A DNA stretch of 64,000 nt from Porphyridium purpureum. Lineage: Eukaryota; Rhodophyta; Bangiophyceae; Porphyridiales; Porphyridiaceae. The position numbers and the translations under genes were made by a program. This document shows, piece after piece, positions 5,663 through 63,827 of this stretch. The notes beneath the pieces were generated by a model. That model was given only the letters and a program-made list of their open reading frames with translations, was not told the DNA's origin and searched no databases. The stretch covers positions 1,116,001 to 1,180,000 of the forward strand of contig VRMN01000004.1 of NCBI GenBank assembly GCA_008690995.1, written 5' to 3'. The first letter of the stretch is position 1. Every line of letters starts with the position of its first letter.

Positions 5663-6830
5663 GCACGGCCCTCAATTCTCCCCCGCACTCACGCTCCCAC
5701 TCTTTCTCCCCTTACCACACGAACCACGCAACCGGTTTGCCCAAATCGGCGACTACGCCACGTCGTGCGTCGCCGCACAACACCAAAAAGCCCTTCCGTG
5801 GCCGTACCGCGCGCGATATCACACACCACAGCGCCCGCTCTTCAATTGCACCCCAACGCACCGCTGCTCCCTGTCCACCACCCACACACCCACACACCTC
5901 CACACAAACACATATACACACACAAGCTTTTGCATCAACACCCGCGTCGCCCCTTCGTTCCTCTTCCTTTCGACCACCACCGACCGACTCACACCGCCGG
6001 CCTTCTGAAAAAGAAACAGACGCCAACTGTACCTCCGCGATTGAATCGGCGTTCCCGAGAGGTACAGCCGTGCGCGTTTCGTATCTCCCGATCTCTGCAC
6101 TAAGAAAACGCGCTCAAACAATCAGCACACCTCCGAGCTGTACTTTTATATATTAAAATGGCCTGTTTTGAATTGCAACGTGCTCGCGCATGTAACGGAA
6201 ACGAAAAGCGCCATTTCGAAACGGACATGCAGACGGACACAGCCGAATCGAGCAGAGAGCCGAGCAGAGCTTGGGAAGAACAGTGATGATGGCAGAACGG
6301 AACTGGCCGTCGCGGCGAAATGGGACGCGCGCGCCTGGAGGTTTCCGTTTGGAACGGCGGATTTGGTAGGTGATTGGCCGGCGTCGATGTGACGCCAAGG
6401 GATGGTTTGGTCATAGGGGGGTTTGGGGTTTGGATTGGATTGCGGCACCTCAGCCTGCGCGGCTGCTGGTGGTTTGTGGAGCAAAGGTAGGAATGGATGG
6501 AAACAGTGCGTGGCTCTGCGTCAGGTGCTCGAAGGACGTACGTTGCGAAGCGAGTCGCGACGCATCAGGTATAAATGCACAGTGTGGTTGCACACAGGGC
6601 GACTGAGTGAAGGTGCGGGTGCGGACAAGGAAAAGGTCAGACAGAAAGTATTGCCGCGCACATACTTATTTCAGCAGAGGCCTTGATAGCTACGGGTACG
6701 TAGACATCAAAAGTGCAGAGCGTGTGCCCTGGTACGGATGTTTTGTCGCATCGTAGCGCACATGTTCCGACCCCCGAGGACGATTGACAAGAGACTCACT
6801 GACGACGTACCGGAATAGAAAGACAGCACG
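5663..6830. promoter_or_regulatory. Divergent La / CDC20 intergenic region
   Basis: The La side (5663-6020) is C- and CA-rich on the plus strand, so G/GT-rich in La sense, with short CA repeats at 5880-5930. ACTGTACCT at 6026 and an inverted partner at 6059 sit at its end. A TATATATTAAAA stretch lies at 6146-6157. The CDC20 side has a TATAAAT at 6570-6576, about 255 bases before the CDC20 ATG. I see no convincing gene inside. Confidence 0.5.
6026..6034 (-). promoter_or_regulatory. AGGTACAGT element, La gene
   Basis: An exact ACTGTACCT on the plus strand, AGGTACAGT in La sense, about 365 bases before the La ATG. An imperfect inverted copy (AGGTACAGC on plus, 6059-6067) lies next to it. It is one of a window-wide set in intergenic DNA. 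Confidence 0.55.
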
Positions 6831-8501
6831 ATGTTTGGCAGCCAGCTTTCAGAGGTGGACGAGTTCCAAAGCTTCGATGGGCCGATGGAAAACGCGCCAC
6901 TGGCGCGATGGGAGCGCAAGGCCAAGGCCCTCGAGTCGTCCAGAAGCTTGAACATGAACAGCGCCGTGACAAGTGGCACAACCTCGCGCGCAAAGACGCC
7001 AAACAACCGCACGCCGCGCAAGACGCCGCAAGCCGACCGCTTTATTCCAAACCGAAGCAACATGAACATGGATGTGAGTCGCATGCAGCTGAATTTTGGA
7101 GACAAGGAAAATGGCAGCGGCTCTCTCGCAGCTATGGACTCTGGCCTTTGCGCTGCGGCCGATTCGGATGACAACACGCTCGGGAGCGTTGACTATGATA
7201 TGGCGCTGGCCAATTCTCTGCTGGGCAAGCGCCCCTTCGCCACATCTAGTGGCTCGATCGGTGCCGCCATGAACGACGAGCTGGACGACCATGAAAGCGG
7301 TCCCGAACGCGGTCCGGAACTCGGGCCCGATGAGCTCGGCAGCAAGATTTTGTCTTTCAAGAGCAAAGCTCCAGAGCCCAAGCAAGGATACGTCAATTCG
7401 CTGCGTGTACTGTACTCTCAAAGCGCGGCGTCCACAATGGCCGCGCCGGCGCGCAAGCGCACGCTCCGCCACGTGCCAACAGCGCCGGAGAAAATCCTTG
7501 ACGCGCCAGATATTCTGGATGACTACTACCTCAACCTGCTGGACTGGAACAAGCAGAACATTCTAGCGGTCGCGCTGGGGCAGATCGTGTACCTGTGGAA
7601 CGCGTCGTCAGGAACCATTGAACAGTTGTGCGAGGTCCCCTCTGACACACCAGACGACTATATCAGTTCAGTGTCATGGATCCAGGACGGAAATGTGCTG
7701 GCCGTGGGTACCGGCAGCTGCGACCTGCAGCTGTGGGACACTGACCGGCTGAGCATGATCCGCTCCATGAAGTCGCACGCGGCCCGTGTTAGCTCCTTAG
7801 CATGGAATGGGCCGTTACTGTCGAGCGGGTCTCGGGACGCCACCATCCACAATCACGACGTCCGCATTGCGCAGCACGTGGTGGCCGAGCTAGCTGGTGC
7901 GCATCAACAGGAAATTTGCGGGCTCAAGTGGAACTCGCAGGGCACGCAGCTCGCATCAGGCGGCAACGACAACCTCCTTTGTATCTGGGATGCCGGACAA
8001 CGCACGCCGCGACACACGCTCAATCACCACACTGCGGCCGTCAAGGCGCTGGCGTGGTGCCCCTGGCAGCCTGGCCTGCTGGCGTCTGGCGGAGGTACCG
8101 CGGACCGCATGCTGCGCTTCTGGAATACTCAGTCGGGCGCGTGTGTGAACAGCATAGACACCAAGTCGCAGGTTTGCTCGATTGTGTGGAACCCGCACGA
8201 CAAGGAGCTGCTCACGAGCCACGGATTTTCACAAAACCAGCTCACCTTGTGGAAATATCCCAGTCTCATGCGTGTCGCGGAGCTGCCAGGCCACACGTCC
8301 AGAGTGCTGCACACTGCGCTCAGCGCGGACGGTCAGACCGTCGTTTCAGCTGCCGCTGATGAGACGCTGCGCTTTTGGCGTGTGTTCGAGGGCCAAAACG
8401 CGAGCAAGAAGAGCAAGACAACGGCCGGCTCGGGCTCCACGCACGGCGGCGTGTCCTCTCAGTCCAACCGGACAGGGCTGCGCGGGCTGCAGATCCGCTG
8501 A
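6831..8501 (+). CDS. CDC20: CDC20, anaphase-promoting complex activator
   Basis: The 556-residue WD40 protein activates APC/C and recruits substrates for ubiquitination in mitosis. The N terminus carries the family signature DRFIPNRS at 69-76 and a KEN triplet at about 93-95. Then come KAPEPKQGYVNSLRVLYSQ and RHVPTAPEKILDAP, typical of CDC20. WD40 repeats run from about 230 to 520 (LLDWNKQNILAVALG, VYLWNASSG, WIQDGNVLAVGTG). The last two residues are Ile-Arg, the IR tail that docks on APC3/CDC27. The C-box is not obvious. The TPxK-type sites near residue 55-65 (KTPNNRTPRKTPQ) look like CDK sites; that is inference. Cdh1/FZR1 is the main alternative, but the motif order favours CDC20. Confidence 0.93.
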   Translation: MFGSQLSEVDEFQSFDGPMENAPLARWERKAKALESSRSLNMNSAVTSGTTSRAKTPNNRTPRKTPQADRFIPNRSNMNMDVSRMQLNFGDKENGSGSLAAMDSGLCAAADSDDNTLGSVDYDMALANSLLGKRPFATSSGSIGAAMNDELDDHESGPERGPELGPDELGSKILSFKSKAPEPKQGYVNSLRVLYSQSAASTMAAPARKRTLRHVPTAPEKILDAPDILDDYYLNLLDWNKQNILAVALGQIVYLWNASSGTIEQLCEVPSDTPDDYISSVSWIQDGNVLAVGTGSCDLQLWDTDRLSMIRSMKSHAARVSSLAWNGPLLSSGSRDATIHNHDVRIAQHVVAELAGAHQQEICGLKWNSQGTQLASGGNDNLLCIWDAGQRTPRHTLNHHTAAVKALAWCPWQPGLLASGGGTADRMLRFWNTQSGACVNSIDTKSQVCSIVWNPHDKELLTSHGFSQNQLTLWKYPSLMRVAELPGHTSRVLHTALSADGQTVVSAAADETLRFWRVFEGQNASKKSKTTAGSGSTHGGVSSQSNRTGLRGLQIR

Positions 8502-9198
8502 AAGGGCGTGCGCCGCCGCATCTGGCTGTCGGCTTCGACGGGCTAGCGGTGGTCGTGCGTCCCACCGAGGGCGTGACGGTGTGACGAATATGACTTGTAC
8601 TGCATTGATAGTGAAGGAAACACTCTCTAACTCTGATCGTAAATTAACGAATCCAGTAAACTCTCGCGCAATTGTAGAAGTTTCCGAGATGTGTGCCCGT
8701 ACAGCATTCTGTGCAAGAGTGGCTCGCATCGGCGGGTGAGTTGCTGAACATGTGTCCGTGTCTGTGAGAGAGAGAATCGTTGGGTAGGCTATCGAAGCAG
8801 ATTCTAAACAAGAGGAGGATTTAACTCAGACTCGGCAACAAGTTTTGCGTCCGTCTCTTCAATATCTGACATTCTGCCAAAGCTTTCCTTCACAAACTAT
8901 CACCGATCAAACTACATTGTCAAGGCGTTGTAGCTTTTTTTTTTTTTTTTTTCTTTCCTACTGCTCTTGTCTCATCGGGTCACGCACGGACCGTTTTTGC
9001 CAACGACAGTTGCGAACATCAAAGGCATCAAAACAGTCTGGGCCGGTAATACACTCTACACGACGCAAGCCGGATCACCGGGAGCACGAGCAGACAAACA
9101 AGAGACACGGGCGCATGAAGCAAAAATGATTTACGACACCCGAGCTGACGTGGATTTCCGCAGGCCGCTGCCAGCCGAGACGCGCTAGCTCTGATCCT
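8502..9198. other. Convergent 3' region between CDC20 and glutamine synthetase
   Basis: Both flanking genes end here. A 17-base T run at about 8937-8953 is the main feature. I see no convincing gene. Confidence 0.4.
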
Positions 9199-10437
9199 CT
9201 ACACGAGACTAGTCTCCATGATCTTCAAGGTAACTGCGTACGGACAAATGTTGCTGCCCGGGCGCCTGTCCTCAAAGTATCCCTTGTTTTCTGCCTCTGT
9301 CGTTCTCGGGATACGCACGGACGCGCCGCGGTTCGCCACACCCCACGAGAACTTTGTGATGGGAGCTGTCTCGCAAGCGCCTGTCAGACGCTTGTCATTA
9401 TCAAATCCATACACCTTGATGTGCTCTTCATGCTTCTTGGCAAAGTTCTCCATCACCTTCTTAATGATCTCGTAGCCGCCTTCCTCGCGCATGGGTTTGG
9501 TCGAGAAGTTGGTGTGGCAGCCAGCACCGTTCCACTCTCCCGGCATCGGCTTCACATCTAGGGAGACCTTGATCCCGTACTCCTCAGACATGCGCGACAT
9601 GATGTACCTTGACATCCAGATGTGGTCTCCGGACTCGATGCCTTCACACGGTCCGACCTGGTACTCCCACTGCGACATCATGACCTCGGCGTTCACGCCG
9701 CTGAGCTTGATGCCTGCGTACAGGCAGGCGGCGGCGTGGGCCTCCGCCAGCTCGCGGCCGTAGATTCTTGTGGCTCCGTTTCCGCAGTAGTACGGACCTT
9801 GCGGTGCCGGATAACCCTGCTTGGGCCAGCCGAGCGGGTGGCCGTCCAGCCCCAGAAGCGTGTATTCCTGTTCGATTCCGAACCACGGCACCAGATCCTT
9901 GTGCTTGTCAAAGATCTGAGCCGCCGGGTAGCGCATATTTGAAGGCAGGGGCGTGCCCGCGGGGGTGTATGTGTCACAGAGGACGAGAATGTTATTGCCG
10001 CCGCGGAACGGATCCTTGAAGATCGCCTGGGGCTTGAGCATGACCTCCGAGTCGGTACCCGGTGCCTGTTCCGTGGACGATCCGTCGTAGTTCCAGAGGG
10101 GCAAATCTGCGACGGACTTTGGCGCGGAGCTGAGCACCTTTGTCTTGGACCTGATATCCAACGGATCCATGCACACCGGCACGCCGTCGACCATCTGCGC
10201 GGCCCTGCCGCCCAACCACACGTACTCCGCGAAGATCTGCCCGCCCAGGTCGAGCTTCTCGTACTTATCCTTCAGCTTCTGATCGTACAGCTCCCTGCCG
10301 ATGTTCTCCACCTTCATGCTGAGCGGCGCTGCCGCGGCGCGGCCGGCTCCCGCACGCGCGGCGCCGCGCGGCACGCACATCGCCGCGCGCACCGCCGGCG
10401 TCATCACCGCCGCTCCCGCTCCCACAAATGCCGCCAT
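9199..10437 (-). CDS. GLN2: Glutamine synthetase type II, plastid-targeted
   Basis: The enzyme joins ammonium to glutamate using ATP. The catalytic part begins at [10 protein letters not shown] and shows GSII hallmarks: [71 protein letters not shown] and [18 protein letters not shown] place the start at the ATG at 10437. The preceding 46 codons to an ATG at 10575 lie in a low-complexity leader and look spurious. From 10437 the first roughly 45 residues are rich in Ala and Arg with no acidic residues, like a plastid transit peptide. The length of 412 residues fits GSII plus a leader. A mitochondrial location is the alternative. An AGGTACAGT element lies about 445 bases upstream. Confidence 0.93.
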
Positions 10438-11340
10438 CGTGTCCCCTCTACCAACCCCCTTCTTCAACCTTACACCCACCCTCCCTACCAAAAACACCCT
10501 CTCTCCCTCTCTCCTCCTCCCCTTCCCTCCCCCCTCTTCAAACCTTCTTATCCCAATCCTCGAAAAACCCAACACCCACGCTCTTCACACCCAAACCCAA
10601 ACCAATTTATCCCTCAAACCCCCACCACTGCCAATACAAAACACCGAAACCCCCACCAACCACCACCACCACCACAACAACAACAAGACCAACAAGAACA
10701 CAACCTCGATCTCGCTTTACGATACATCGATTGGACAGGCTGCCGCGCGCGCGCCGCGCATCGAGCCGCGTTTTGTTCACACGCACCACGAATCATCACC
10801 ACACGAATACGCACACGCGCCGCGGCACCGCGTGCGCGCTCGCTCGGCATACACAAACGCACACCATTTGACGACGCAACCACTGTACCTCTGTGTGCAT
10901 CTACATGTTTTGTGCGTGGGTTCTTGCGTGCTGATGGTGCGGTTGGTCGACACGCGCGGTGGCGAGTGCAATGGAGAAAGTACAGTTGTGGCTTCAGGCA
11001 AAGGGGGAGCGCATGGCCGATGAGGATGACACAGGGGGTTTTTGCACGCGGATGCGATGCATGGGCAAGTATGAATGGGACACGGCGCGTTCGCTGCGTG
11101 GGGGTGAAGACCTGGACGCGCGTGGGTGCGATCATCTGGCGCTGGCTCGCGCGTGGTGGTTCGTGATGGCGGGTTGGGTGCGTGCGTGCAGACGGGCCGT
11201 TACGGCTTGGCAATGCGGTCGTGGCATGGGCGGCTACATTCGAGCGTGACGGAACGGCGCATGGATGCCGGGACTTCTATGAGCATATGTACTTCGCACG
11301 GCCATTGGTACCAGGAATGAACACGCGCGCGATCGAATGA
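10438..11340. promoter_or_regulatory. Long glutamine synthetase leader and downstream side of BTB gene
   Basis: From 10438 to 10730 the plus strand is nearly G-free (C/A/T with CAC and CAA runs), so the GS sense strand is G-rich. ACTGTACCT at 10882 and an inverted AAGTACAGT at 10986 follow. The rest (11000-11340) is GC-rich without a convincing gene. Plus-strand frames at 10301-11023 and 10959-11249 have no domain signal. Confidence 0.45.
10882..10890 (-). promoter_or_regulatory. AGGTACAGT element, glutamine synthetase gene
   Basis: An exact ACTGTACCT on the plus strand, sense-oriented for glutamine synthetase, at the outer end of its G-rich leader. A near-inverted copy follows about 100 bases further out. 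Confidence 0.5.
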
Positions 11341-24284: not shown

Positions 24285-25091
24285 ATGGAGATTGATTCGG
24301 AGACGCTGGGACCACGTGGCCCGAAGGAGGCCCGTCTGATGAGGTTCGACGGGAAGAGGGACCTTCTGGTTGTGAAGACGTGGTTGTTCCAGGCGAGAAA
24401 GAAGATCTTGGGCCGGCTGTTGGAGAGCATCCACCCGGACGATTTGGAGAAACGTCTGCTTGCGGAGAGGCGTGCTGTGGACTTGGCATCAGACTACTTC
24501 GAGGGAGAGGCGCTTCATTGGTGGGTTCTAAACTGCGAACGCTACCCGCAGGAGATCCCCACGACGTGGAATGATTTTGCTGCCCTCGTCAGTGCTCGGT
24601 TCACGCCGCAGGATTCGATCAGGCGTGCAAGGGACAAGTTGACGCGTCTTTCGCAGAAAGGCCCGGCCCATGCGTATGTGGCGGCTTTTCAGGACGCGGC
24701 ACTTGTGATTCCGGACTTGTCGGACGCAGAAATGATGGACCGCTTTGTGAGGGGTCTGAAGCCCGAGGTCCGCTTGGAAGTGTACAAGCGAGGAGTGAGT
24801 ACGTTCGCGGAGGCTGCGCAGGTGGCGGTGGTCGTGGATGACGCCATTCATGCGACTCGCGGCGTGCGTGATTCAAGTGTGAGGACGCCATTTTTCGGTC
24901 GCGCAGCGCAGGAAGGACCCGTCCCGATGGAGCTGGGACATGTGCAGGGTCAGAGGCGTGCTCGTACCGAGGTCATGTGCTGGAATTGTGGAAAGCTGGG
25001 ACACATCGCCAGGAAGTGTCCCGAGGCAAGGAAGACTATCCAGCAGCTGGAAGGAGACTCGCCGGAGTCAAAAAACGAGGAGCTCGAGTAG
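24285..25091 (+). mobile_element. Gypsy Gag
   Basis: The roughly 268-residue Gag starts MEIDSETLG. It has a Retrotrans_gag-type capsid core (EGEALHWWVLN, FAALVSARFTPQD, VAAFQDAALVIPDLSDAE, FVRGLKPEVRLEV) and a C-terminal CCHC zinc knuckle CWNCGKLGHIARKC. It packages the element RNA. Confidence 0.9.
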
Positions 25092-28000: not shown

Positions 28001-28468
28001 CCACCGAGCGAAGGGTGGAGGCCTGCGCGCGACGGACAGACAAAGGACATGGCGGAGCACTGGTTTCGCCTGTGCAAAGTCCATGAAGAAGTCCGCGACA
28101 ATTTGATCGAAGCCCAGGGGAGAATGCAGAAGTTCTTCGATCGACGCAAGGATGCCCGGGAGTTTCAAGTTGGTGATCAAGTGTTGGTCACGGCGCCGCA
28201 ACTGCGGCCGAACAAGAGTGATTTGGAGGCACCAAAGTTTCTTGGTCCGGTGCCTGTCATTGAGAAGGTAAGCTCGCATGCTTACCGAGTGGTTTTGCCT
28301 GAGGGTGTGGCTTGTCATGATGTTTTTCCGATCCAACATCTGAAGCCATACTATGGACGCGAAGACTACATGGCAGGGGAAAATGATGAAGAAGTACCCG
28401 ACGAAATGCCGGCGTCCGATTCTGAGCCAGACTTGTTGAAAATTATCGAAGAGTCTGACTCTGAATGA
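24977..28468 (+). mobile_element. Gypsy Pol (protease, RT, RNase H, integrase)
   Basis: The 1163-codon frame has the protease DSGATDNFM; RT with FSKLDLASGYHQLRV and YLDDILVFTK; RNase H starting FEVYTDRSEVAVGG; an integrase HHCC zinc finger (HHDIPTAGHRG, CHACQ); and a DDE core with SMDFVTELP, VSDRDPLFTS and QTERVNRVIREML. A GPY-like module (KFLGPVPVIEKV) follows. The protein ends in an acidic tail without a chromodomain. Confidence 0.93.
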
Positions 28469-44674: not shown

Positions 44675-45070
44675 ACCAATGTGCTCACGCTGACTCTTGA
44701 CTTTTCACACGCACAACACACACACACACACACACACACTCACTCACACACCCACCTGCTCGTTTACACCCTTCGTCATTTTCCAGGGGACACTTGTGAG
44801 ACGCCGCAGGCGCTCGAACTTGTGAACGTGGCTGAGATGGAGATACAGTGGTGCAATCCGATAATTTGGGGGTGTTTTTATATGGAAGGGAGTGTAGGTA
44901 CAGTGAGTTCTGGAATTTTTGAATTGGAGCGGCGCGTGGCAAGTGCGCAGGTGGTGGTGTTGTGTGGTGCCGAGGAAGAAAGAGGAGCAGAGCGACAGGC
45001 AGGGAGGGAGGGAGGGACGGAGAGAGAGTAAGAGCGATAGAGGGTGGAAGGGGTTTGGAACGAGGCGAGA
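44675..45070. promoter_or_regulatory. COX17 / SERF divergent promoter region
   Basis: A CA microsatellite lies at 44713-44752. AGGTACAGT at 44896 is in SERF sense. A purine-rich leader (GGGAGGGAGGGACGGAGAG and following) runs from about 44990 to the SERF ATG. Confidence 0.5.
44896..44904 (+). promoter_or_regulatory. AGGTACAGT element, SERF gene
   Basis: An exact copy on the plus strand, 166 bases before the SERF ATG, again followed by a G-rich sense leader. It is the only exact copy serving a plus-strand gene, and its orientation flips accordingly. Confidence 0.55.
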
Positions 45071-45271
45071 ATGACACGAGGAAACCAGCGCGAAATTGAT
45101 CGTGCGAGGGCGCAGGCACGGGCGGAGAAGAACGCCGGGAAGAAGAAGGAGAAGGGCGACGGCAACCAGGCGCAGAAGTTGTCAAATAAGAAGGAGGCCG
45201 ACGCGGAGATCATGCGCAAGAAGCAGCAGGCGGCTGCGGAGAAGGCGGCCGCGCAGCAGGCCGGAAAGTAG
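45071..45271 (+). CDS. SERF: SERF/4F5-type small basic protein
   Basis: The 66-residue protein begins MTRGNQREIDRARAQARAEK, the conserved 4F5/SERF start, followed by a Lys/Gln/Ala-rich helix. SERF proteins are small, charged, mostly disordered; in animals they promote amyloid aggregation and bind RNA. I set the start at 45071, not the upstream ATG at 45044, because the family begins M-T-R-G-N-Q. Confidence 0.88.
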   Translation: MTRGNQREIDRARAQARAEKNAGKKKEKGDGNQAQKLSNKKEADAEIMRKKQQAAAEKAAAQQAGK

Positions 45272-45469: not shown

Positions 45470-47998
45470 CTAGGCTAGCGCGGGTCGACGCCTGGACTTG
45501 ATGTGGAGCTGTGGCTGCGACGTTGCAGTTCCACTTGGACTTTCGGGACTTGATGCTTCGCACCCCAAATCATCTCCGTTATTCCTGCCTTCGTCATCCT
45601 CATTTTCGCTGCCGCTGTACAAGCTCTCACTTCCGCGCGGTACGCGCAGCGTACCGTGGTCGTCAAACGCCTCGAGTGGCGGTGCAGACGGAGTGTACAG
45701 ATGCTTTCGATAAGCAAGGGGCACGTCTCCATCGCTGCTGCTAGTGCCAAGGTTACCTGGACCGTCATCATGATACGTGCCCTTCATTACAGCTCCTTGC
45801 TCGAGGTCGTGCTCGAAATGATTACCGGATGGTCCGCGCGCATTTGATAGACCTGAGTCAGTCTTCGCCGACGGTGCTGCACCTGTCGTCGCTCTGGTAT
45901 CGGGTTTGCCACCATTCTGCTTCCCACCATCATCTCCTTCCACCGCGTCTCGAATTTCGTCAAGCTCCTTTTGGTGTCGTCGTTTGGCGAGCCGCTTCTT
46001 TGCCATGGGGATTCCGAATTTGACGACCACAAAGACAATGATTAGCACAATTATCCCAATCAAGCCCAAGTAGAGCAGATTCCGCCAGCACCCCAGACGC
46101 ACAAAGCAAGTGATACTGAAAAAGGATGGGCAGTCGGCCAAACACTGCAATGCGCCCGATGTGGATGCAGAATCCGACCCTTGTGGACCGCTGCTTTCCC
46201 CGCCTTGTTCTTCCCGATCCTGGTCGACAGAGAAACTCGTAAAGTTTGCGCGGAATGATGACACATTCTGACCAATCGCGTCGGAAAGCAGCACATCACA
46301 GGAATGTTGCCCTCCAAGAATGGTCTCGGCCTCGACCTGAAACTCCACCGTTTTGTTCTCCCGCGAAGTCAGAAAGACGCTCTTGGCAAGAATTGGTGCA
46401 ATGTCCGGTCCGCAGAAACTGCTCAGCGTGTACTCGGCCGTGCGGTAGCCTGTGTTTTCAATACCGACCCGAAGCAGCCCATCCTTTGAAAACGCAGCGA
46501 ACGGAAGGATGGTCGCATTCAAAATTAAGCCGGGGGACACAGTGACTTGAGTGAACAGGGCGTCTGCTGCAAAAGACAACAGAAGCTCGGCGTTCTGGTA
46601 CCGCTCCGTTTCAAAGTATAGCTTGGGCTGCTGAGAAAACATGTCCCTCGCGGAAAGCATGCCAAAATTGGAGAGAAAATAGGAGCCCTTGAGCCCCTTG
46701 GCTTCGCGTTCCAGGTCTTCTTGGTAGTAATCTTCCAGCTGGTTGCGCAGGCAACCGCCTTGCGGTTGTTCGCATGCGTTCGCCTGGTTTCGGTACGCAC
46801 TGTGCGCAACGCCTATCTTGTCGCATTCTGAGCCATCGAGCGTCACCAAGTGCCGGTCGACCAGCATCCATCGCTGATGCTCGGGGCCTGTCGGGTCCCT
46901 CGAAATGCGCGCAATGCATTCTTCGGTAAACTGATCACACGTAACCGGCCACATAAAGTACTTGGAAGACAGATCAAGCGTACCTTGCCATGCTGCATAG
47001 TCACCGAGCAGCCGTACCTGCAGCGTGCCGTTTGAAGCCAAAAGAATCGGTTGTTCGGGCGACACCACGACTTGTTCACTGTAGCAACTGATAGAGTCTT
47101 TGGCTGAGGCATGTATCCAAGTTGTCCGGCCTATAGTCACATTGGTCTCGTTGTTGTTGTTCTTCTTGTTGTTGTTGTTGTTGTTGCCGCTGCTGCTGCT
47201 GCTATTCAACGGAAGATCACCAGAAGTCGGGTGGTCTAGGACATTGCAGTGCGTGATGTTGAGGGTGACGGTGTAAAGAACGTCCGGTGCCCGCACTTCA
47301 AACGCCGAGTACCACAGATTGCCAAACCTCAGGCAATGTGCAGAATAGTCAGACGAGCCCCCAAAGACAGAGAAAAAGGAACATTCGATTGCCGAGCGCG
47401 GGGCATCGTTCGATGTTCCCAAGTAGTCATCGAGCCCGCACTTACAGCAGAAACCCTGACTGTCCCAGACGCGGTCGTCCGCGTTCCGCGAGGATGGTGG
47501 GTCATAGAAGAAGCCACAAGATGCCGCATCGTCTTCCCATCCATCCCGACACGGATTGTACAACCAGTTGAAGGGGCCGTTCGTGTTTGTCTGCTTGGTG
47601 ACTTCGAACGGCTTGTTGTTGACATCGCGGAGGTAGAAGAGCGGGTATCGAAGCACAATCTTGGAGCGCGACATCGAGATTTCGCTTCGCTGCCTAAACT
47701 TGTACCCAACATTTGGGTCGGCATTGTCTAGTTCACCTGCTTTCTCCGTCAAGCTTCCGAACACAAGCTTTTCCGTGCCAGCCAGTGCGCCGTTTTGCAG
47801 TGCCACGGTGACAATGTACTTCTTTTCACATGTCAGCGACACGTTGGTGGTTGACGCTTCGTCCAGGCACTGCACAATTTGGCCGACGCCGGATACAACT
47901 GCGCGAGCGCTTGGTACACAAAGACGCATCACGGTTACGCCAAGCAACACGACAAGAGCGAGACGATGTCGGCTTGAGTCTACAGATAACATTCGCAT
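45470..47998 (-). CDS. HAP2: HAP2/GCS1 gamete fusogen
   Basis: The 842-residue type I membrane protein has a signal peptide at about 1-33 (LALVVLLGVTVMRLC..ARA). A Cys-rich ectodomain at 34-620 carries the HAP2 hallmarks CGFFYDPPSS, GFCCKCG, SAHCLRFGNLWYSAFEV and many paired Cys. The membrane helix is at 641-660, followed by a basic stop-transfer (AKKRLAKRRHQKE) and a cytosolic tail of about 180 residues. An Asn-rich insertion lies at about 271-283. HAP2 merges gamete membranes during fertilisation and has a class II fusion-protein fold. The single exon is intact. The ectodomain continues with an IgG-like domain III (CGPDIAPILAKSVFLTS). Its presence implies a sexual cycle, at least ancestrally. 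Confidence 0.93.
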   Translation of the reverse strand: MRMLSVDSSRHRLALVVLLGVTVMRLCVPSARAVVSGVGQIVQCLDEASTTNVSLTCEKKYIVTVALQNGALAGTEKLVFGSLTEKAGELDNADPNVGYKFRQRSEISMSRSKIVLRYPLFYLRDVNNKPFEVTKQTNTNGPFNWLYNPCRDGWEDDAASCGFFYDPPSSRNADDRVWDSQGFCCKCGLDDYLGTSNDAPRSAIECSFFSVFGGSSDYSAHCLRFGNLWYSAFEVRAPDVLYTVTLNITHCNVLDHPTSGDLPLNSSSSSGNNNNNNKKNNNNETNVTIGRTTWIHASAKDSISCYSEQVVVSPEQPILLASNGTLQVRLLGDYAAWQGTLDLSSKYFMWPVTCDQFTEECIARISRDPTGPEHQRWMLVDRHLVTLDGSECDKIGVAHSAYRNQANACEQPQGGCLRNQLEDYYQEDLEREAKGLKGSYFLSNFGMLSARDMFSQQPKLYFETERYQNAELLLSFAADALFTQVTVSPGLILNATILPFAAFSKDGLLRVGIENTGYRTAEYTLSSFCGPDIAPILAKSVFLTSRENKTVEFQVEAETILGGQHSCDVLLSDAIGQNVSSFRANFTSFSVDQDREEQGGESSGPQGSDSASTSGALQCLADCPSFFSITCFVRLGCWRNLLYLGLIGIIVLIIVFVVVKFGIPMAKKRLAKRRHQKELDEIRDAVEGDDGGKQNGGKPDTRATTGAAPSAKTDSGLSNARGPSGNHFEHDLEQGAVMKGTYHDDGPGNLGTSSSDGDVPLAYRKHLYTPSAPPLEAFDDHGTLRVPRGSESLYSGSENEDDEGRNNGDDLGCEASSPESPSGTATSQPQLHIKSRRRPALA

Positions 47999-48673: not shown

Positions 48674-48898
48674 CTAGTACCCGGGGTTTCCGCGAATACG
48701 ACGGCGCCGATCCAGCATATCACGCCTACACTGAGAATGTGCGATCTGGACGGAGCGGCACTCCTCTGACACCCCCGACGCCTCGGACTTGGCGCACTCC
48801 TCGAGCGCCTTTGATTGATCTGGGTGGTTGCGCACACACTCGCTGTCACTCAGGCACTGGAGCAGCCGCTGAAACAGCCCGGCGCACGACGACGACAT
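48674..48898 (-). CDS. COA5: COA5/PET191 cytochrome oxidase assembly factor
   Basis: The 74-residue twin-CX9C protein has CAGLFQRLLQC and CRSVQIAHSQC as the two CX9C arms, with SDCV-like SECVRNH between. The closing DMLDRRRRIRGNPGY matches the PET191 R-x-R-x-x-G-x-x-G-Y tail. It is imported into the mitochondrial intermembrane space by the disulfide relay and needed for complex IV assembly. The start at 48898 (MSSSCAG) puts the first Cys at residue 5, as in the family; an ATG at 48910 adds four residues. It lies 4 kb from COX17, a second complex IV assembly gene. Confidence 0.9.
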   Translation of the reverse strand: MSSSCAGLFQRLLQCLSDSECVRNHPDQSKALEECAKSEASGVSEECRSVQIAHSQCRRDMLDRRRRIRGNPGY

Positions 48899-50478
48899 GG
48901 CGCCCCCCAAACCCTCGAGGTGCCTTCTCTCCCGCTCTCACACTCACCGTCTACCATCCCGCCTTTCCCCAGACACCGTCGCTCCCCTCAAACCAGAGGA
49001 AACTGTACCTCCACCGCGCATTCACGATACCCTACTGTACCTACCACAACCCTAGAGTACAGTGAGCAGATCCTCCTGCCACTCACGTCAGCAGGCACGA
49101 ATTCAAAGCAGCACGCCATGATTGAAAAGCACGCTGCGGCGCCGCTCCTGCGGTGCTAGTTTCAACTAACGAACGCACCACGCAGCCAGCCAGCGGAGCC
49201 TGCTTCACCTTGTTGCCGGCGGCTCATCGGCGACGCACAGCGCCACTTACCGTCGTTCCTTTTCGCGGCGGGTGTCCCCTTGCATTTACCACAACCGACC
49301 GAGCCGGCGCATATGCGTTGCAGGCCAGGACACTTTTTTGTTACGGTACGTTCTGCACTGTGTCACTATGAACAAAACACGCCTACAGGCTGTATATGTG
49401 TGTCGGTGTGTGTATTTTGAGCAAGGATTCAAATAAACCTCATTGGTTGAGCAGCAGATACATATCATGATGATATGGAAAGTGTGTGTATACATGAGTG
49501 TGTATGTTTTGATATGAAAGACAAGTAGGAATGGCTAAAGAAATGACCCGATGTTGTGAGTTTGGCAGTCCGGTCTGGAAGAATGATTTCCGATTACGGG
49601 CGCTATTTCCAAAAGTAAAATACACGCGACAAAAACACCCTATTCTGAGCGTAAGTAGAGACGGTGACAAAATCAATAAGACTCTAAGAAGATCGAGCGC
49701 GCTCTGAAAACGATGGATACTATGGGAGGAAAGAGAGAGAGAGAGAGAAAAGGGGGGGAACGCCGCAAGAAGAGGAAAATGGGGGAAATTCAAACTGCCG
49801 CATTCATCATGCTTGTCGGGACGGACGGGCATGAAATCAAGCGGATTCATGGAAACCCATGTGTGCTGCTGCTGCTGCTGCTGCTGCTCCAGCATCATCC
49901 GATTCATCTACTCATCCAAGTCATCTCGTCATTCATCTATGCCAAAAACGTATGCAATAAGATATGCCGTTTTGGGGGGGTGGGGGGGCTAAACAGACAA
50001 GTGAGTCGTTTCTAGTTTGTTGTGTGGAGCGACGAACCAACACGTGGCTGTGTAAATGAGAGTCGTTCGTGTATGAGCTTTGTGCGCGAATCGCGAAACG
50101 AGCTCGGTAGTGATACTACATACATACATACATTCGCTAGTAACTTCGTACGCCGCATGGAATTCGTCCACCACGCGCGCAGAGTCCTCAGTGCCGTGTC
50201 AGTTGTGCAAGCCGGCGCGTGTCGCGCCCTGCGTATATAAACGTGGGCCGTTCTTAACGTAGCTTCCGTTCCACAGCCTGACGGGTTGGGCCGACGCGGC
50301 GGGAGCGACGGGGTTGGGCTTCTCAGTCATCGTGTCTCTGGCTCAGGTACCGAAACGCGGGACACGCGGCTTGGGAGAGCACACAGCGGAAAGAGGCACA
50401 GCGCGCGAGCTAAATAAATGCGGACGGAACGCGCCGGTCAAACGGGGAAGTGACAAAGACTAGCGTGATAATCTTGAC
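48899..50478. promoter_or_regulatory. COA5 / CDCA7-type gene divergent region
   Basis: This is the longest gene-free stretch outside the transposons. It holds two COA5 elements (49012, 49034), a CTG run at 49864-49888, GA-rich sequence at 49735-49760, G runs at 49974-49988 and a TATATAAA at 50234-50241, about 240-280 bases before the next gene's ATG. The minus-strand polyGln frame at 49440-49907 is probably chance. Confidence 0.4.
49012..49042 (-). promoter_or_regulatory. Two AGGTACAGT elements, COA5 gene
   Basis: Exact copies lie at 49012-49020 and 49034-49042, 22 bases apart (about two helix turns), 114 and 136 bases before the COA5 ATG. An inverted near-copy (GAGTACAGT) follows at 49056. 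Confidence 0.6.
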
Positions 50479-58302: not shown

Positions 58303-59004
58303 ATGGATACTATGGCAGCTGGGCAAATGGGGTTCGTGCTGGCGAGCAGTTCTGCGCGCGCAGACGCGAGCGGGCGGCGGTGGACATGTGAGCTCAGGTC
58401 TGGCCGGCCAGCTATGCACGCGCGTGCGCCTGGCGCTTGGGCAGGAACAGGACAGCTGACAAGGTCACAGGTTAGGCGCGCATCACGGTCGTCTTGGCGA
58501 AACGTGCAGATGGGAGGGAGTTCAAGTGCGGACCCGGACGACGAGGTCCAGAGGAGAAATCGGTTGGCTATCGAGCAAGAGTTCAATTTGGGATCGAAAA
58601 CGAGCACGGCCACGTCACCCGAGGCGTCCCAGTCTAGTTCGTCCGGGAAGGCTGCGTCCGCTGCTGCGACTATGGACTCGGAAGATGCGGAGCGCGAGCA
58701 GCAGGAAAGCAATAAGAAGCAATCCCCGAATACTAGCAAGGCAGAACCACCGTCAGACTCGCTGGATGAAGGCACGCGAAAAGCATTGCGGGAGAGGATC
58801 GAGCTGCAGGCAACGACCCAGCGTCAGTGGGCGGAAATCTGTGCAATGTTTGTGACCCTAGAAGGGATGAGCGGCATCGAATTGATGGACCGTAAGTCGG
58901 GCAACCCATCGTTCAAAGCGTGGGTCTTTGTGCTGCTCTGGTGGACGGTGCCGATTGGTCTCGTGTACTATTTGTACAAGTTTAGCAGCGGAATTCACTT
59001 CTGA
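58303..59004 (+). CDS. Hypothetical plastid membrane protein
   Basis: The 233-residue protein has a basic Ser/Ala/Arg-rich leader of about 70 residues (transit-like), an acidic and Ser-rich linker, a helical segment (RKALRERIELQATTQRQWAEICAMFVTLEGMSGIELMD) and one C-terminal membrane helix (WVFVLLWWTVPIGLVYYLY) with a seven-residue tail. The layout suggests an inner-envelope or thylakoid tail-anchored subunit. I recognise no family. Confidence 0.6.
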   Translation: MDTMAAGQMGFVLASSSARADASGRRWTCELRSGRPAMHARAPGAWAGTGQLTRSQVRRASRSSWRNVQMGGSSSADPDDEVQRRNRLAIEQEFNLGSKTSTATSPEASQSSSSGKAASAAATMDSEDAEREQQESNKKQSPNTSKAEPPSDSLDEGTRKALRERIELQATTQRQWAEICAMFVTLEGMSGIELMDRKSGNPSFKAWVFVLLWWTVPIGLVYYLYKFSSGIHF

Positions 59005-59111
59005 AACAGTACGTTTGGCGGCGGCAATCGGGTCCTAAGCGAAATGCGGAGCGAATGTCAACTGCAAATTTTAAATAAATCCTGGAACGAGAGCCAGTCC
59101 ATCCTGCTCTT

Positions 59112-60134
59112 TCACGCGCGCAGAGGCCTTTCTGCCAGATGACTTGCTGCCGAGAGCTGGGTTTGAACTGTGTCTGCGATACGGGACGCAACTTCGCGCC
59201 TCGTCATATCTTTGACGTCAACTCCTTGCCTAGCGCATTCTTCGCAGACCAAGGAAATGGACACCGGGTCAATGGGGATGGAGCGCGCGTTCAGTAGCAA
59301 AATCGCGTTGCGGGCGCGCGCAACGCGAAGATGGGCTTCGGGGCCCACAGATAATGGCGTTATGTAGCGTTCCTCAGAGAGTGGGGCGTCGCTTCTGCTT
59401 CCCGCTTTTTTCGTCTTATCCTCGTTCTGCGCGGTTTCAAGATCGTGCGGGCTAAGCCAAATATATCCGTTGGTCCCCAGGATGGCCGAAACGCCCAAGG
59501 ACAGCCGCACGTAATGCTTTTTTGCGCGCGCAATGAGAGAAGGAGACACTTGTAAAAGCACGCCATTCCTCAAGGCGCCGAATTTGTTTGAGCGCGTATG
59601 CAAGGCGATGGATGCGTCGCTGCGAATTTCCTGAACCTCCGCGCTAATTGGATCGCCCTCTGCAAAAAAGGCGCGCATGTTAAGCTCATCCTCGTACGTG
59701 CGCTTGCGCTGTTCGCCGAGTGGCAACGTGATGGCAGACAGCAGAAGCGAGGCCTCCTGGACGGCGTTAATGTCGACGAGCCAGCGCTTCCCGGCAACCT
59801 GGAGCACTCGACCGACCACCACGTCGCCCACTTCCGGCACGTAGCGCGATCGAAAGGGACGGACAGTGACCAACCGATTTACAGTCAACACCGTCCCTGC
59901 TTGCGACGACACCAGCCTACCATTTCGAACATGCGTTCCGTGTCCGCGCACGTAAGTTCCGTCCGCAAACAAATCATTTCCAGGCAACACCAAATCGTGC
60001 GGCTCCTCCGAACCACCTTCATATCGCCTCTTTCCCAATAGTAAAGTACCCGGGCCAGCATATGAGCCTGTCCCGGACACGTGCTCCAGTCGAGCCACGT
60101 GCGCGCGCGCCACACGCGATTCACTCGCCGCCAT
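59112..60134 (-). CDS. RRP4: RRP4 exosome subunit
   Basis: The roughly 340-residue RNA exosome cap protein has an N-terminal beta domain (LVLPGNDLFADGTYVRGHGTHV), an S1 domain at about 85-170 (YVPEVGDVVVGRVLQVAGKRWLVDINAVQEASLLLS, GDPISAEVQEIRSD) and a KH domain (VSAILGTNGYIWLS, with G-x-N-G). It guides RNA into the exosome core. Start chosen at 60134 (MAASESRVAR); the earlier ATG at 60200 lies in the leader. An AGGTACAGT element lies 78 bases upstream. Confidence 0.92.
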   Translation of the reverse strand: MAASESRVARAHVARLEHVSGTGSYAGPGTLLLGKRRYEGGSEEPHDLVLPGNDLFADGTYVRGHGTHVRNGRLVSSQAGTVLTVNRLVTVRPFRSRYVPEVGDVVVGRVLQVAGKRWLVDINAVQEASLLLSAITLPLGEQRKRTYEDELNMRAFFAEGDPISAEVQEIRSDASIALHTRSNKFGALRNGVLLQVSPSLIARAKKHYVRLSLGVSAILGTNGYIWLSPHDLETAQNEDKTKKAGSRSDAPLSEERYITPLSVGPEAHLRVARARNAILLLNARSIPIDPVSISLVCEECARQGVDVKDMTRREVASRIADTVQTQLSAASHLAERPLRA

Positions 60135-60211
60135 CTCGTTTCTTTCTCCAACCAACTGCTCCCCCCTCCCGGTCCATCCATCCGACCGTGCCGCCACCAT
60201 CGCTTGTGCCC

Positions 60212-60220
60212 ACTGTACCT
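60212..60220 (-). promoter_or_regulatory. AGGTACAGT element, RRP4 gene
   Basis: Exact copy; a second near-copy (ACTGTACTT) follows at 60233, 21 bases further out. This repeats the two-helix-turn spacing seen upstream of COA5. Confidence 0.6.
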
Positions 60221-60319
60221 CTCATCAATGTCAACTGTACTTGATGATGATGATGACATTGTAATGACGCAGTGCATTGGAATGCGGTGGCTGCGTGAGG
60301 CTGCAGGGGCGGTGAAAGT

Positions 60320-61249: not shown

Positions 61250-61473
61250 AGCTGTCGCTGGCTGGCGGGGTGACTTGTTTTTGTTGAAGATCCTGCTGCT
61301 GGTACTACCGACGAGACACCAGCCGCCGGGCTTGGGCGAGCACAAGCCAGCGGAACATTACAAAGAGTAAGGAAAAAATGGGTGCTTGCTTGGATGTCCC
61401 GCCCCACACCCTGGGCGAAAATTTCTTGCGTTTGAAAACCCATGATTCAGTTTCTTCTATCCTGAGCGTTCCG

Positions 61474-62631
61474 CTAAAGCGTTGCCGAGCCTCTTGCCGC
61501 TACTTTTTCGTTATCTTCTCCCAGACCTTGTCGTTCTGGGTCCGGGATGTGAACAGTGCTCTTTTCTGTCCATTCCTTGGCTTGCGTCGCTTCGCCGCCA
61601 AATGGTTTCTTACCGTGGAGCCCCAGCATCGAAAACAATGCTTCATCCTCGTTGATCTTGACATTTGGCGTCGTCAAAAGCTTATCGCCCGTGAAAATAG
61701 AATTGGCACCAGCGAGGAAGCACAAAGCCTGTTCAATGCTGCCAAGAGAATTACGCCCAGCAGAAAGACGCACCATTGACGCCGGCATGACGATACGGGC
61801 CGTCGCAATCATGCGTACCAACGAAATCGGTTCCAGAGGCTTCATGTCCTCGAAGGGAGTGCCCTTGTTGGCGACGAGGGCATTGATGGGCACCGACTCG
61901 GGGTGAGCGGGTAGCGTAGCTAGTGTGTGCAGCATAGATACACGATCATCGTCGGTCTCTCCCATACCAATGATGCCACCACAACAAACCGACAAGCCTG
62001 CGCTGCGAACCGCCTGCAACGTCTGCAGGCGGTCTTGAAACGAGCGCGTCGAGATGACTTTTGGATAGTACTCCTCCGAAGTATCAATATTGTGATTATA
62101 TGCTGTTAGCCCAGCCTGCTTAAGTCGACTGGCCTGCTCTTCGTTCACCATACCCAAGGTGGCGCATACTTCCATATCCATAGCGCGAATCTCCGAAATC
62201 ATATCGAGCACGCGATTGAACTGGTTCTTTCCCGCCGACGACACACCACGCCAGGCCGCACCCATGCAGAAGCGGGTGCTGCCGGACGCCTTTGCGTTGC
62301 GGGCTGCCTCCAGAACGTCGGCTCCGTCCATGAGTTTCTCGGCCTTCACGTCGGTTTTGTACTTGGACGACTGCGAGCAGTACGAGCAGTCCTCGGCGCA
62401 ACCGCCGGTCTTAATCGATAGCAAGGTACAACGCTGCACCTGTGATGGCGAGAAGTATGCGCGGTGCGCGCTCGCGCCGGCGTACACGAGCTCGAGCAGC
62501 GGCATCTCAAACAACGAGCGCACTTCGGCCACTTCCCAGTCGCGCCGGACGGGGTACTTGACGCGCAGCGCGTGCTGCTCCGCTTGCGTCATACTTTGAA
62601 GCGCATGCCTGGCCACCCGATTGGCCGCCAT
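61474..62631 (-). CDS. BIO2: Biotin synthase
   Basis: The 385-residue radical SAM enzyme inserts sulfur into dethiobiotin. The S-adenosylmethionine cluster motif is GGCAEDCSYCSQSSKY (Cx3Cx2C). MGAAWRG, GLTAYNHNIDTSEEYYPKV, GGIIGMGE and the Arg of RLSAGR (Fe2S2 ligand) are all present. Start chosen at 62631 (MAANRVARHALQ), which gives a basic mitochondrial leader; an earlier ATG at 62727 lies within 15 bases of the promoter-type motif and is less likely. The tail contains an extra hydrophilic region (ATQAKEWTEKS..RQGLGEDNEKVA) beyond bacterial BioB. Confidence 0.93.
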   Translation of the reverse strand: MAANRVARHALQSMTQAEQHALRVKYPVRRDWEVAEVRSLFEMPLLELVYAGASAHRAYFSPSQVQRCTLLSIKTGGCAEDCSYCSQSSKYKTDVKAEKLMDGADVLEAARNAKASGSTRFCMGAAWRGVSSAGKNQFNRVLDMISEIRAMDMEVCATLGMVNEEQASRLKQAGLTAYNHNIDTSEEYYPKVISTRSFQDRLQTLQAVRSAGLSVCCGGIIGMGETDDDRVSMLHTLATLPAHPESVPINALVANKGTPFEDMKPLEPISLVRMIATARIVMPASMVRLSAGRNSLGSIEQALCFLAGANSIFTGDKLLTTPNVKINEDEALFSMLGLHGKKPFGGEATQAKEWTEKSTVHIPDPERQGLGEDNEKVAARGSATL

Positions 62632-62740
62632 CTTCGATCTTTCCGTCACGAATCCGTCCAAATGTCTCGCGCAAGTCGTTCGAGGCGTGCACATAAATCT
62701 CTCCGTCACACGTACGAACGCGATCACCGCCGAAGTGACT

Positions 62741-62749
62741 CACTGTACC
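62741..62749 (-). promoter_or_regulatory. AGGTACAGT element, biotin synthase gene
   Basis: Exact copy 110 bases before the chosen ATG, matching its distance in the TIC21-like and COA5 genes. It supports 62631 as the start. Confidence 0.55.
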
Positions 62750-62912
62750 TGTCTTGAGCGTTGCATCTGGCGCATGCAAGTTGCAAGAAGCGTCGATGGC
62801 ACTGAGACTGAATGGATGACGACCGACTTCGGCACCTTGCTCGGAAACAAAATAACGCTGTATCCTTTCTGTTTACTCTTCTCATCCCTCGTACCCACTC
62901 CGAGCACCCAAG

Positions 62913-63710
62913 CTAGTACTGGGTCTTGAGCCACAGGGTGACAATAAGGCCAATCAGAAGCGACAGGAGCGAGTTTGACGCGGCCTGGATGACAAGAAGG
63001 TCGATAGGCTGTAAACTCGCAGTGAGGTTTGCGTATGCGCCACTAGAGTAGCGGTTGGTGTTGGTGAAGATTCGAGTCAGAAGGGTGCCGTTGAGTCCCT
63101 GAAGCCCAATCACGGTTGCCAGCAGCCCTGCCAAGCAGACCAGCGTGCCCACGTACAGCGAGCGCGAGATAAAGGGTCGAGAGATCTTGTCCCTCTGGTT
63201 CGCAATGTCCTTGAGCTGGAGCATGCAACGGTATCCGATACGCGTGTACCCATAGGTCCACAGAATCGCGACGATCGAGAAACACGCGCCGACGGTTGTG
63301 AACACCATCGCGAGCTTGGTTATACCGTTGATCGACACAGAACCCTCGACGGAAGGAAACGCTAGCGCAAAGCCGAGGATCACGGCCGAGACGATGGTCA
63401 GTGCGAGCTGCAGCCAAAACGCAATCCAGCCGAGCTTCCAAAAGACGACAGACGCCCGCTTAAAATTAATTTCCTGGGCACCCTTTCCCACTGCCATGGA
63501 CGGAGCAACGTCCTTTGCCAGCTTCTGCTCTTCATTGCTCATGCGCAGCGCAGCAGCTGATCGCACGCACGGCACACGCGTGCGCTCCCGTCGGCGCAGC
63601 ACGACATCACCTCGCGATCCCGCGCAAACCAACGACGTCCTTTGCCGCGAGTGTGCGAAATATCCACCGGGCGCTTGCAGGAGCCCGTTCACAAATGCCA
63701 CCGGCGCCAT
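62913..63710 (-). CDS. TIC21: TIC21-like inner-envelope protein (DUF3611)
   Basis: The 265-residue protein has an Arg/Ala-rich plastid leader of about 65 residues and four membrane helices (FWLQLALTIVSAVILGFALAF, LAMVFTTVGACFSIVAILWTYGY, LYVGTLVCLAGLLATVIGLQG, ASNSLLSLLIGLIVTLWL). The segment RASVVFWKLGWIAFWLQL opens the DUF3611 domain shared with plant TIC21/PIC1 and cyanobacterial homologues. Plant TIC21 is linked to protein import or iron transport in the plastid envelope; which applies here is unknown. The AGGTACAGT element lies 109 bases upstream. Confidence 0.85.
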   Translation of the reverse strand: MAPVAFVNGLLQAPGGYFAHSRQRTSLVCAGSRGDVVLRRRERTRVPCVRSAAALRMSNEEQKLAKDVAPSMAVGKGAQEINFKRASVVFWKLGWIAFWLQLALTIVSAVILGFALAFPSVEGSVSINGITKLAMVFTTVGACFSIVAILWTYGYTRIGYRCMLQLKDIANQRDKISRPFISRSLYVGTLVCLAGLLATVIGLQGLNGTLLTRIFTNTNRYSSGAYANLTASLQPIDLLVIQAASNSLLSLLIGLIVTLWLKTQY

Positions 63711-63808
63711 TGACTCGTCACACTCTCACACCCGCACGTCTCATCGCTTCTCCCACGCTCGCGTCTCGCAACCAACCCAAACTCTCGCGCTTCACACCCA
63801 ACCAACCC

Positions 63809-63827
63809 ACTGTACCGTACTGTACCT
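63809..63827 (-). promoter_or_regulatory. Tandem AGGTACAGT elements, TIC21-like gene
   Basis: One near-copy (ACTGTACCG, 63809) and one exact copy (63819) overlap head-to-tail at 10-base spacing; a third near-copy (ACTGTACTC) lies at 63842. Confidence 0.6.

What the first reader, a model, noticed from the sequence alone, without database searches (positions are those of the whole stretch)
6026..63827. A 9-base AGGTACAGT promoter element shared by at least seven unrelated genes
Exact AGGTACAGT (gene sense) occurs upstream of La, glutamine synthetase, SERF, COA5 (twice), RRP4, biotin synthase and TIC21-like, at 6026, 10882, 44896, 49012, 49034, 60212, 62741 and 63819. I found eight exact copies by eye, all intergenic, where about 0.5 would be expected in 64 kb on both strands with equal base use. 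In each case the motif points the same way relative to the gene, and for five genes it lies 78-167 bases before the ATG. Near-copies recur at 10- or 21-22-base spacing. This looks like a core-promoter or transcription-start element of this lineage.
Basis: partly seen in the sequence, partly recalled or inferred. Interest (0 to 1): 0.85.

Follow-up and report, generated by a model that had tools for sequence, protein, structure and literature searches.

The report
Dominant promoter motif of red alga Porphyridium
A nine-letter DNA word that recurs in front of many unrelated genes of a single-celled red alga is real, sits near where transcripts seem to begin, and most likely marks where an unidentified gene-switching protein binds, in a group of organisms whose promoters are almost uncharted.

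Summary
AGGTACAGT occurs 8 times in the window (0.13 expected) and 1178 times in the 22.16-Mb genome, against 297 for the reversed word. A linker identical over 490 of 490 residues to PDB 6kgx LRC2 makes the organism Porphyridium purpureum (species of 6kgx recalled). The working unit is shorter and looser: R-D-GTACAGT-K. Among 9-mers seen 15 times or more in 264 kb it is the most over-represented after simple repeats. In 200 kb fetched without regard to the motif, the core lies 49 times in promoter-type spacers, 3 in tail-to-tail spacers, 9 in genes, 2 unclassified. It forms clusters with broad spacing. Orientation is biased (44 sense: 13 antisense within 300 bp of the ATG), not strict. No fixed distance to ATG or TATA was found. 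Its position nevertheless follows an estimated start of the transcribed leader, median 28-47 bp upstream. I read it as a proximal-promoter binding site of a sequence-specific activator, marking a mostly TATA-less promoter class, not an initiator. The bound factor is unknown, and no transcript 5' ends were available.

The parts
6026..6034 (-). AGGTACAGT, upstream of La-protein gene (4370-5650 -)
   Evidence: core 382 bases before first ATG
10882..10890 (-). AGGTACAGT, upstream of glutamine synthetase gene (9199-10437 -)
   Evidence: 451 bases before first ATG
44896..44904 (+). AGGTACAGT, upstream of SERF-like gene (45071-45271 +); a TATAT lies about 20 bases upstream
   Evidence: 173 bases before ATG
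49002..49010 (-). AGGTACAGT, upstream of COA5/PET191 gene (48674-48898 -)
   Evidence: 110 bases before ATG
49034..49042 (-). AGGTACAGT, second copy upstream of COA5/PET191
   Evidence: 142 bases before ATG
49057..49063 (+). core GTACAGT in opposite orientation in the COA5 promoter cluster
60212..60220 (-). AGGTACAGT, upstream of RRP4 gene (59112-60200 -)
   Evidence: 18 bases before the first ATG; the RRP4 N-terminal domain begins at residue 70, so the real start may lie further in
60234..60242 (-). AAGTACAGT, second copy upstream of RRP4
62742..62750 (-). AGGTACAGT, upstream of biotin synthase gene (61474-62694 -)
   Evidence: 54 bases before ATG
63809..63817 (-). CGGTACAGT, copy upstream of DUF3611/TIC21-like gene (62913-63710 -)
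63819..63827 (-). AGGTACAGT, copy upstream of DUF3611/TIC21-like gene
63843..63849 (-). core GTACAGT, third copy upstream of DUF3611/TIC21-like gene

Best explanation
AGGTACAGT is the best version of an asymmetric site of about 9-10 bp, R-D-GTACAGT-K. A sequence-specific DNA-binding activator of the red alga Porphyridium purpureum reads it in the proximal promoter, typically a few tens of bases upstream of transcription start. The protein binds as a separate unit with a footprint of about 9 bp. Several sites can sit side by side in either orientation, sense preferred. Bound protein opens the promoter and places the polymerase downstream, giving a mostly TATA-less promoter class used by about a quarter to a third of genes, with no common pathway seen. 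Shown here: the sequence, its enrichment, promoter location, orientation bias, clustering, absence of core-to-core gaps of 0 or 1 base in the listed pairs, and tracking of the estimated leader start. Inferred: that a protein binds it, that it activates, and that the protein may be a C2H2 zinc-finger (the commonest red-algal factor class in print; a 9-bp asymmetric site suits three fingers) or a MYB/SANT-type protein.
For: Genome-wide AGGTACAGT 1178 vs 297 reversed control; DGTACAGTK 4207 vs 1200. Among 9-mers with 15 or more copies in 264 kb, most over-represented after simple repeats, 21 vs 1.1. Core in promoter-type spacers 87, tail-to-tail spacers 4, genes 15, edges 5 of 111; promoter-type vs tail-to-tail per base, Fisher p 4e-4. 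In the blind 200 kb: 49, 3, 9 and 2 unclassified of 63. Promoters with a core within 400 bp: 24 of 84 vs 1 of 84 for the reversed word. Substitution scan on GGTACAGT: changing any core base drops promoter counts from 38 to 0-11. Direct pairs 299 vs 1 control, inverted 186 vs 3; no gap of 0 or 1 base in the 100 listed rows of each. Sense:antisense within 300 bp 44:13, 23:9 in the blind stretch (p 0.02). Position correlates with a masked, leave-one-out composition change point: rho 0.68 in 36 promoters, median nearest offset 33 vs 109 permuted, 0 of 5000; stable for word sizes 2-5. No repeated flanks among 87 sites. Human NRF1 sites are likewise preferentially upstream of the start, with position-dependent function (PMC11269187, passages).
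Against: No factor, binding or reporter data. Start sites are estimated from composition, not measured. Gene models are ORF-based and ignore introns. The wider sample includes the window and 50 kb of C1 chosen after seeing hits; in the blind stretch alone the correlation is weaker (rho 0.47-0.65, 20 promoters). Of 199 control 6-mers 3 reach rho 0.68: two are pieces of the motif, one (TCACGC) is unrelated. The footprint argument is blind to overlapping cores, and one listed row holds two cores 5 bp apart (C2:1133092). Genome-wide adjacency to GAGAGAG leaders is only weakly oriented: 30 matches sense vs 14 antisense, with repeats and overlapping rows, against reversed-word controls of 7 each. 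Motif and TATA avoidance within promoters is not significant (1 of 12 TATA promoters vs 39 of 109 others, p 0.10; a looser TATA gives p 0.11), while genome-wide TATAW upstream of the core is commoner than the control (179 vs 78). No other species could be examined.
Confidence: 0.75

Rival explanations
1. It is the initiator or another core-promoter element of this lineage: the general transcription machinery contacts it at the start site itself, with CAGT around +1, as in metazoan TCAGT-type initiators (resemblance recalled).
For: Position tracks the estimated leader start; sense preferred; 20 of 58 sense copies fall at or inside the estimated leader; GTTCAGTG also looks promoter-enriched (19 promoter, 8 genic); TATAW with a core 17-47 bases downstream occurs 179 times vs 78 for the reversed control.
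Against: Several copies per promoter and both orientations; TATA-to-motif distances show no peak: of the 100 listed rows (of 179), with repeat copies kept once (88), 26 fall at 27-34 bases against 22.7 if flat; only 24 of 84 promoters in the blind stretch carry the core within 400 bp.
Confidence: 0.13
2. It acts in RNA: a 5'-leader element, or a 5' splice site (AG|GTACAGT) of leader introns.
For: Sense bias close to the ATG; AG|GT fits the first bases of an intron.
Against: 13 of 57 proximal copies are antisense; 28 of 31 antisense and 38 of 58 sense copies lie upstream of the estimated leader; several promoters hold two or more sense copies; few inside genes (15 of 111).
Confidence: 0.06
3. 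It is spread by repeats or reflects base composition, with no regulatory role.
For: Some copies sit in repeats: an element seen at seven places and a 13-bp tandem array.
Against: No flank similarity among 87 promoter sites; reversed and single-base-changed words are not enriched in promoters; promoter-restricted.
Confidence: 0.04

Closest known systems
Proximal 'housekeeping' promoter motifs read by one sequence-specific factor (human NRF1, YY1, NFY; Drosophila DRE and Ohler motif 1, the fly examples recalled)
   Same: Short word over-represented in promoters of unrelated genes, preferred position upstream of the start (for NRF1: PMC11269187, passages), several copies allowed; TATA seen in few of the motif promoters here.
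   Different: Different sequence, different kingdom, cognate factor unknown, no functional data.
Initiator (Inr)
   Same: CAGT-like core, sense bias, near the estimated start.
   Different: Multiple copies, both orientations, no fixed distance to TATA.
GTAC copper-response element / SBP-domain site of green plants and Chlamydomonas (recalled)
   Same: Contains GTAC.
   Different: C before GTAC, typical of plant SBP sites by recall, is disfavoured here (2 promoter vs 5 genic); no SBP domain found, though that search had no positive control.

Membership tests
Sequence-specific proximal promoter (TF-binding) motif | Enriched in promoters over genes and 3' spacers | tested here: met
   87 promoter-type, 4 tail-to-tail, 15 genic, 5 edge of 111; 49, 3, 9, 2 of 63 in the blind 200 kb
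Sequence-specific proximal promoter (TF-binding) motif | Defined word with position-specific tolerance | tested here: met
   single-substitution scan, RDGTACAGTK
Sequence-specific proximal promoter (TF-binding) motif | Occurs in clusters and either orientation | tested here: met
   direct 299 vs 1, inverted 186 vs 3; occurrence only, function not tested
Sequence-specific proximal promoter (TF-binding) motif | Preferred position relative to transcription start | tested here: inconclusive
   tracks a composition-based estimate of the start; real starts not available
Sequence-specific proximal promoter (TF-binding) motif | Bound by a factor that changes transcription | not testable with these tools
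   no binding or expression data
Initiator (Inr) | Fixed distance (about 30) downstream of TATA where both exist | tested here: not met
   no peak over 17-47 bases; 26 of 88 at 27-34 vs 22.7 if flat; 100 listed of 179 matches, 12 repeat copies dropped
Initiator (Inr) | Sense orientation only | tested here: not met
   44 sense, 13 antisense within 300 bp
SBP-domain GTAC site | SBP-domain protein in the genome | tested here: inconclusive
   no PF03110 match, but none in the 14 controls either
5' splice site of leader introns | Strictly sense and within transcripts | tested here: not met
   antisense copies and mostly upstream of the estimated leader; transcripts themselves not seen

The most novel reading that the evidence does not exclude
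RDGTACAGTK is the main non-TATA promoter signal of Porphyridium, and possibly of a wider red-algal group. It is read by a red-algal factor with no described binding site and divides the genome into a GTACAGT class of mostly basic cellular genes and a TATA class.
Probability: 0.4. Interest if true: 0.7.

Novelty: new member of a known kind. Interest (0 to 1): 0.55.

Why it matters
[quoted passage not shown] Strong promoters in Porphyridium have been cloned as whole 0.5-1.5 kb fragments (PMC10866757, passages; the words TATA and transcription start do not occur in its text, motif once). A dominant element gives a direct handle for finding the factor, for dissecting the promoters, and for asking how an ancient, reduced algal lineage selects start sites without TATA. 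I searched the open-access library for the motif or for promoter-motif terms with Porphyridium or red algae. One search (GTACAGT as a whole word with motif, promoter, enriched) returned 0 papers; the others showed listings only, in part capped (for example 20 of 166), and none of the listed titles or abstract openings reports this element. Subscription papers and preprints were not covered.

Tried and rejected
Initiator with fixed TATA spacing: tested genome-wide. A first look at TATAAA alone (47 vs 18 control) hinted by eye at a peak near 31 bases, and 8 of its 47 rows read TATAAAGTACAGT without a gap; the broader TATAW pattern shows no peak.

Helical phasing: pair spacings show no clear 10.5-bp period.

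Upstream-ATG avoidance as a start-site marker: uninformative, because ATG is only mildly depleted near genes. CAT, GAGA and CTCT shift instead, which led to the change-point test.

GAGAGAG adjacency as genome-wide orientation evidence: weak and inflated by repeats.

Gene-function theme: 20 motif genes (12 with a Pfam match) and 20 motif-less genes (15 with a match; picked by hand from 45 listed of 94) show no common pathway. I have an impression of more basic-cell functions in the first set, not tested.

SBP family: no match, but no positive control.

Rows dropped: 8 of 100 rows (nested rows, repeat copies, four rows of a tandem array). For one search, a first histogram used 73 of 100 rows and left out not only nested and repeated rows but also nine rows of contig C3; one search redoes it with all 100 rows and with 12 repeat copies dropped, and the report uses. 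A mis-framed COA5 entry was corrected; later counts use the corrected set.
Full report
What was claimed and what is there. The word AGGTACAGT occurs exactly 8 times in the window on both strands, against a mean of 0.13 in 100 dinucleotide-preserving shuffles, none above 2. With one mismatch allowed there are 21, against 6.4 expected. The listed positions are right apart from 49012 (really 49002) and 62741 (62742). The seven genes are as named: La, glutamine synthetase, SERF-like, PET191/COA5, RRP4, biotin synthase, and a DUF3611 protein, whose TIC21 kinship I recall rather than tested. All eight copies lie outside predicted genes and point towards the assigned gene. Distances to the first ATG are 382, 451, 173, 110 and 142, 18, 54 and 115 bases, so the 78-167 range given for five genes does not hold with these models.

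Which organism. The genome has 22,164,627 bases in 46 contigs. One of its phycobilisome linkers is identical over 490 of 490 residues to chain LRC2 of PDB 6kgx, which I recall to be the Porphyridium purpureum phycobilisome. The published assembly of that species is 22.1 Mbp in 52 contigs (PMC6811547, passages seen).

Genome-wide check. AGGTACAGT occurs 1178 times in the genome; the same word read backwards, as control, 297 times. The looser word DGTACAGTK occurs 4207 times against 1200. In a continuous 264 kb (200 kb of contig C11 plus the window), among 9-mers with at least 15 copies, AGGTACAGT is the most over-represented apart from simple repeats: 21 seen, 1.1 expected from a third-order model.

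Samples and their bias. The main blind sample is C11:916001-1116000 (200 kb), picked only because it adjoins the window. The window itself was chosen for the motif, and C1:260001-310000 (50 kb) was picked after hits on C1 had been listed; both inflate densities. Genes were called as open reading frames by hexamer coding score, without introns (149 genes in 314 kb, plus COA5 by hand). I therefore give the main counts for the blind sample too.

What the element is. In a scan of GGTACAGT, changing any base of the core GTACAGT lowers the promoter count from 38 to between 0 and 11, whereas the base before it may be A, G or T (17, 38, 30 against 2 for C) and the base after it is mostly G or T (38, 33 against 9 and 7). 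Aligning 87 promoter sites gives R-D-GTACAGT-K with little further flanking signal, and no two sites share flanks. Of 111 cores, 87 lie in spacers that precede a gene, 4 in tail-to-tail spacers, 15 in genes and 5 at edges. In the blind 200 kb the numbers are 49, 3, 9 and 2 of 63, although genes make up 69% of the bases. There, 24 of 84 promoters carry a core within 400 bp on either strand, against 1 of 84 for the reversed word. Head-to-head spacers are favoured: 28 of 74 divergent and 12 of 67 tandem promoters carry it (p 0.009; the two promoters of one spacer can share a site).

Orientation, spacing, position. Within 300 bp of the ATG (in head-to-head spacers the nearer half only), 44 cores are sense and 13 antisense (23 and 9 in the blind stretch, p 0.02). 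Copies cluster: GGTACAGT followed within 30 bases by a second core in the same direction occurs 299 times (control 1), and by an inverted core 186 times (control 3). An inverted pair can be counted twice in this scheme, so same-direction pairs are favoured by more than the raw ratio. Spacing is broad, from 9 bp start to start upwards, in 92 of the 100 listed direct pairs after dropping 8 nested or repeated rows. In the 100 listed rows of each search none has a gap of 0 or 1 base between cores, which fits a footprint of about 9 bp whose neighbours may touch. The pattern cannot see overlapping cores; one listed row (C2:1133092) does contain two that overlap, 5 bp apart. There is no clear helical period and no preferred 10- or 21-22-base spacing in that list.

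Relation to the start of transcription. No transcript 5' ends were at hand. Leaders in this genome are rich in GAGA and poor in CTCT and CAT on the sense strand, so I estimated the leader start of each promoter from composition, with the motif masked and the promoter itself left out of training. The motif position follows this estimate: Spearman rho 0.68 for 36 promoters; median nearest distance 33 bases against 109 when estimates are shuffled, 0 of 5000 shuffles as low. After correction for spacer length it is 0.65; in the blind stretch 0.62, corrected 0.56, for 20 promoters. Among 199 control 6-mers the mean is 0.19 (sd 0.20). Three reach 0.68: two are pieces of the motif, and one, TCACGC, is unrelated and lies much further from the estimate (median offset 130 against 40 for the core). 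Word sizes 2-5 give rho 0.68-0.73 overall and 0.47-0.65 in the blind stretch (5 to 24 of 2000 shuffles as low there), with sense copies a median of 28-47 bases upstream of the estimate. In one search, 38 of 58 sense and 28 of 31 antisense copies lie upstream. The estimate is indirect and its offset is uncertain by tens of bases.

Core promoter or factor site. TATAW upstream of the core at 17-47 bases occurs 179 times against 78 for the reversed control, as expected if both sit in promoters, but the distances show no peak: 26 of 88 listed cases at 27-34 bases, 22.7 if flat. In the sample, TATA promoters rarely carry the motif (1 of 12, against 39 of 109 without TATA), but this is not significant (p 0.10). 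Multiple copies, tolerated inversion, free spacing and absence from most promoters fit a binding site of a sequence-specific factor next to the start better than an initiator. Human NRF1 gives the closest working parallel: its sites are preferentially upstream of starts and its effect depends on position (PMC11269187, passages). Which protein binds is unknown. C2H2 zinc-fingers are the commonest factor class inferred in most red algae including Porphyridiophyceae (PMC12567131, passages), and an asymmetric 9-bp site suits such a protein; this is inference only. No SBP domain was found, but that search had no positive control.

Which genes. Of 33 genes with a sense core within 400 bp, 20 were scanned are window genes, and 8 crossed locus ends and were not scanned. 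Of the 20, 12 have a Pfam match, among them Exportin-T, a transketolase-type subunit, a PALP plus CBS enzyme, V-ATPase d, a proteasome-type ATPase, DapB, a replication factor C subunit, fibrillin and Sec7. Twenty motif-less genes, picked by hand from the 45 listed of 94, have 15 matches. No shared pathway appears; a bias to basic cell functions is an impression, not a test.

Verdict. As a kind it is familiar. As an instance it is new as far as I could search, and useful because red-algal promoters are nearly undescribed (PMC12770821, passages).

Noticed in passing
L024:1969-3630 (-): Carbonic anhydrase domain fused to a Hint (hedgehog-type autoprocessing) module.
   Followed up: no
L029:1417-2175 (-) and L030:1486-2229 (-): Two genes in the nuclear assembly for divergent phycobiliprotein-like proteins (PF00502) with N-terminal extensions; only weak matches in the PDB.
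   Followed up: partly
G000:C1:2134715, C8:674538, C11:176105, C11:378738 and others: Several TATA-type sequences in the listing are followed about 17 bases later by a TTTNRNTAG/TAT-like string; possibly a second core element of TATA promoters (by eye).
   Followed up: no
G000:C1:2110424, C20:319573, C24:136058, C30:182883, C43:785979, C43:3804646, C43:3946189, C43:4923130: TATAAAGTACAGT without a gap in 8 of the 47 rows; flanks not seen, so a repeat is not excluded.
   Followed up: no
G000:C2:339894-339958, C9:40970, C12:16656, C14:84095, C14:466643, C18:502710, C22:630737: A repeat seen at seven places carries a TATA-like sequence and GTACAGT cores (in three listed places a cluster of four), as if a mobile element had taken up the host promoter word.
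   Followed up: no
G000:C2:2243007-2243120: Tandem array of 13-bp units each containing GGTACAGT.
   Followed up: no
window 45470-47998 (-): HAP2/GCS1 gamete-fusion protein gene, suggesting a sexual cycle.
   Followed up: no
window 24285-28468 (+): Ty3-like retrotransposon gag (24285-25091) with a long open frame behind it (25262-28468); an AGGTACAGC context in that frame recurs about 219 kb away inside another long predicted frame, suggesting a second copy.
   Followed up: no
5' spacers across the 314-kb sample: Leaders are strongly GAGA-rich and CTCT-poor on the sense strand for about 160 bases before the ATG.
   Followed up: partly
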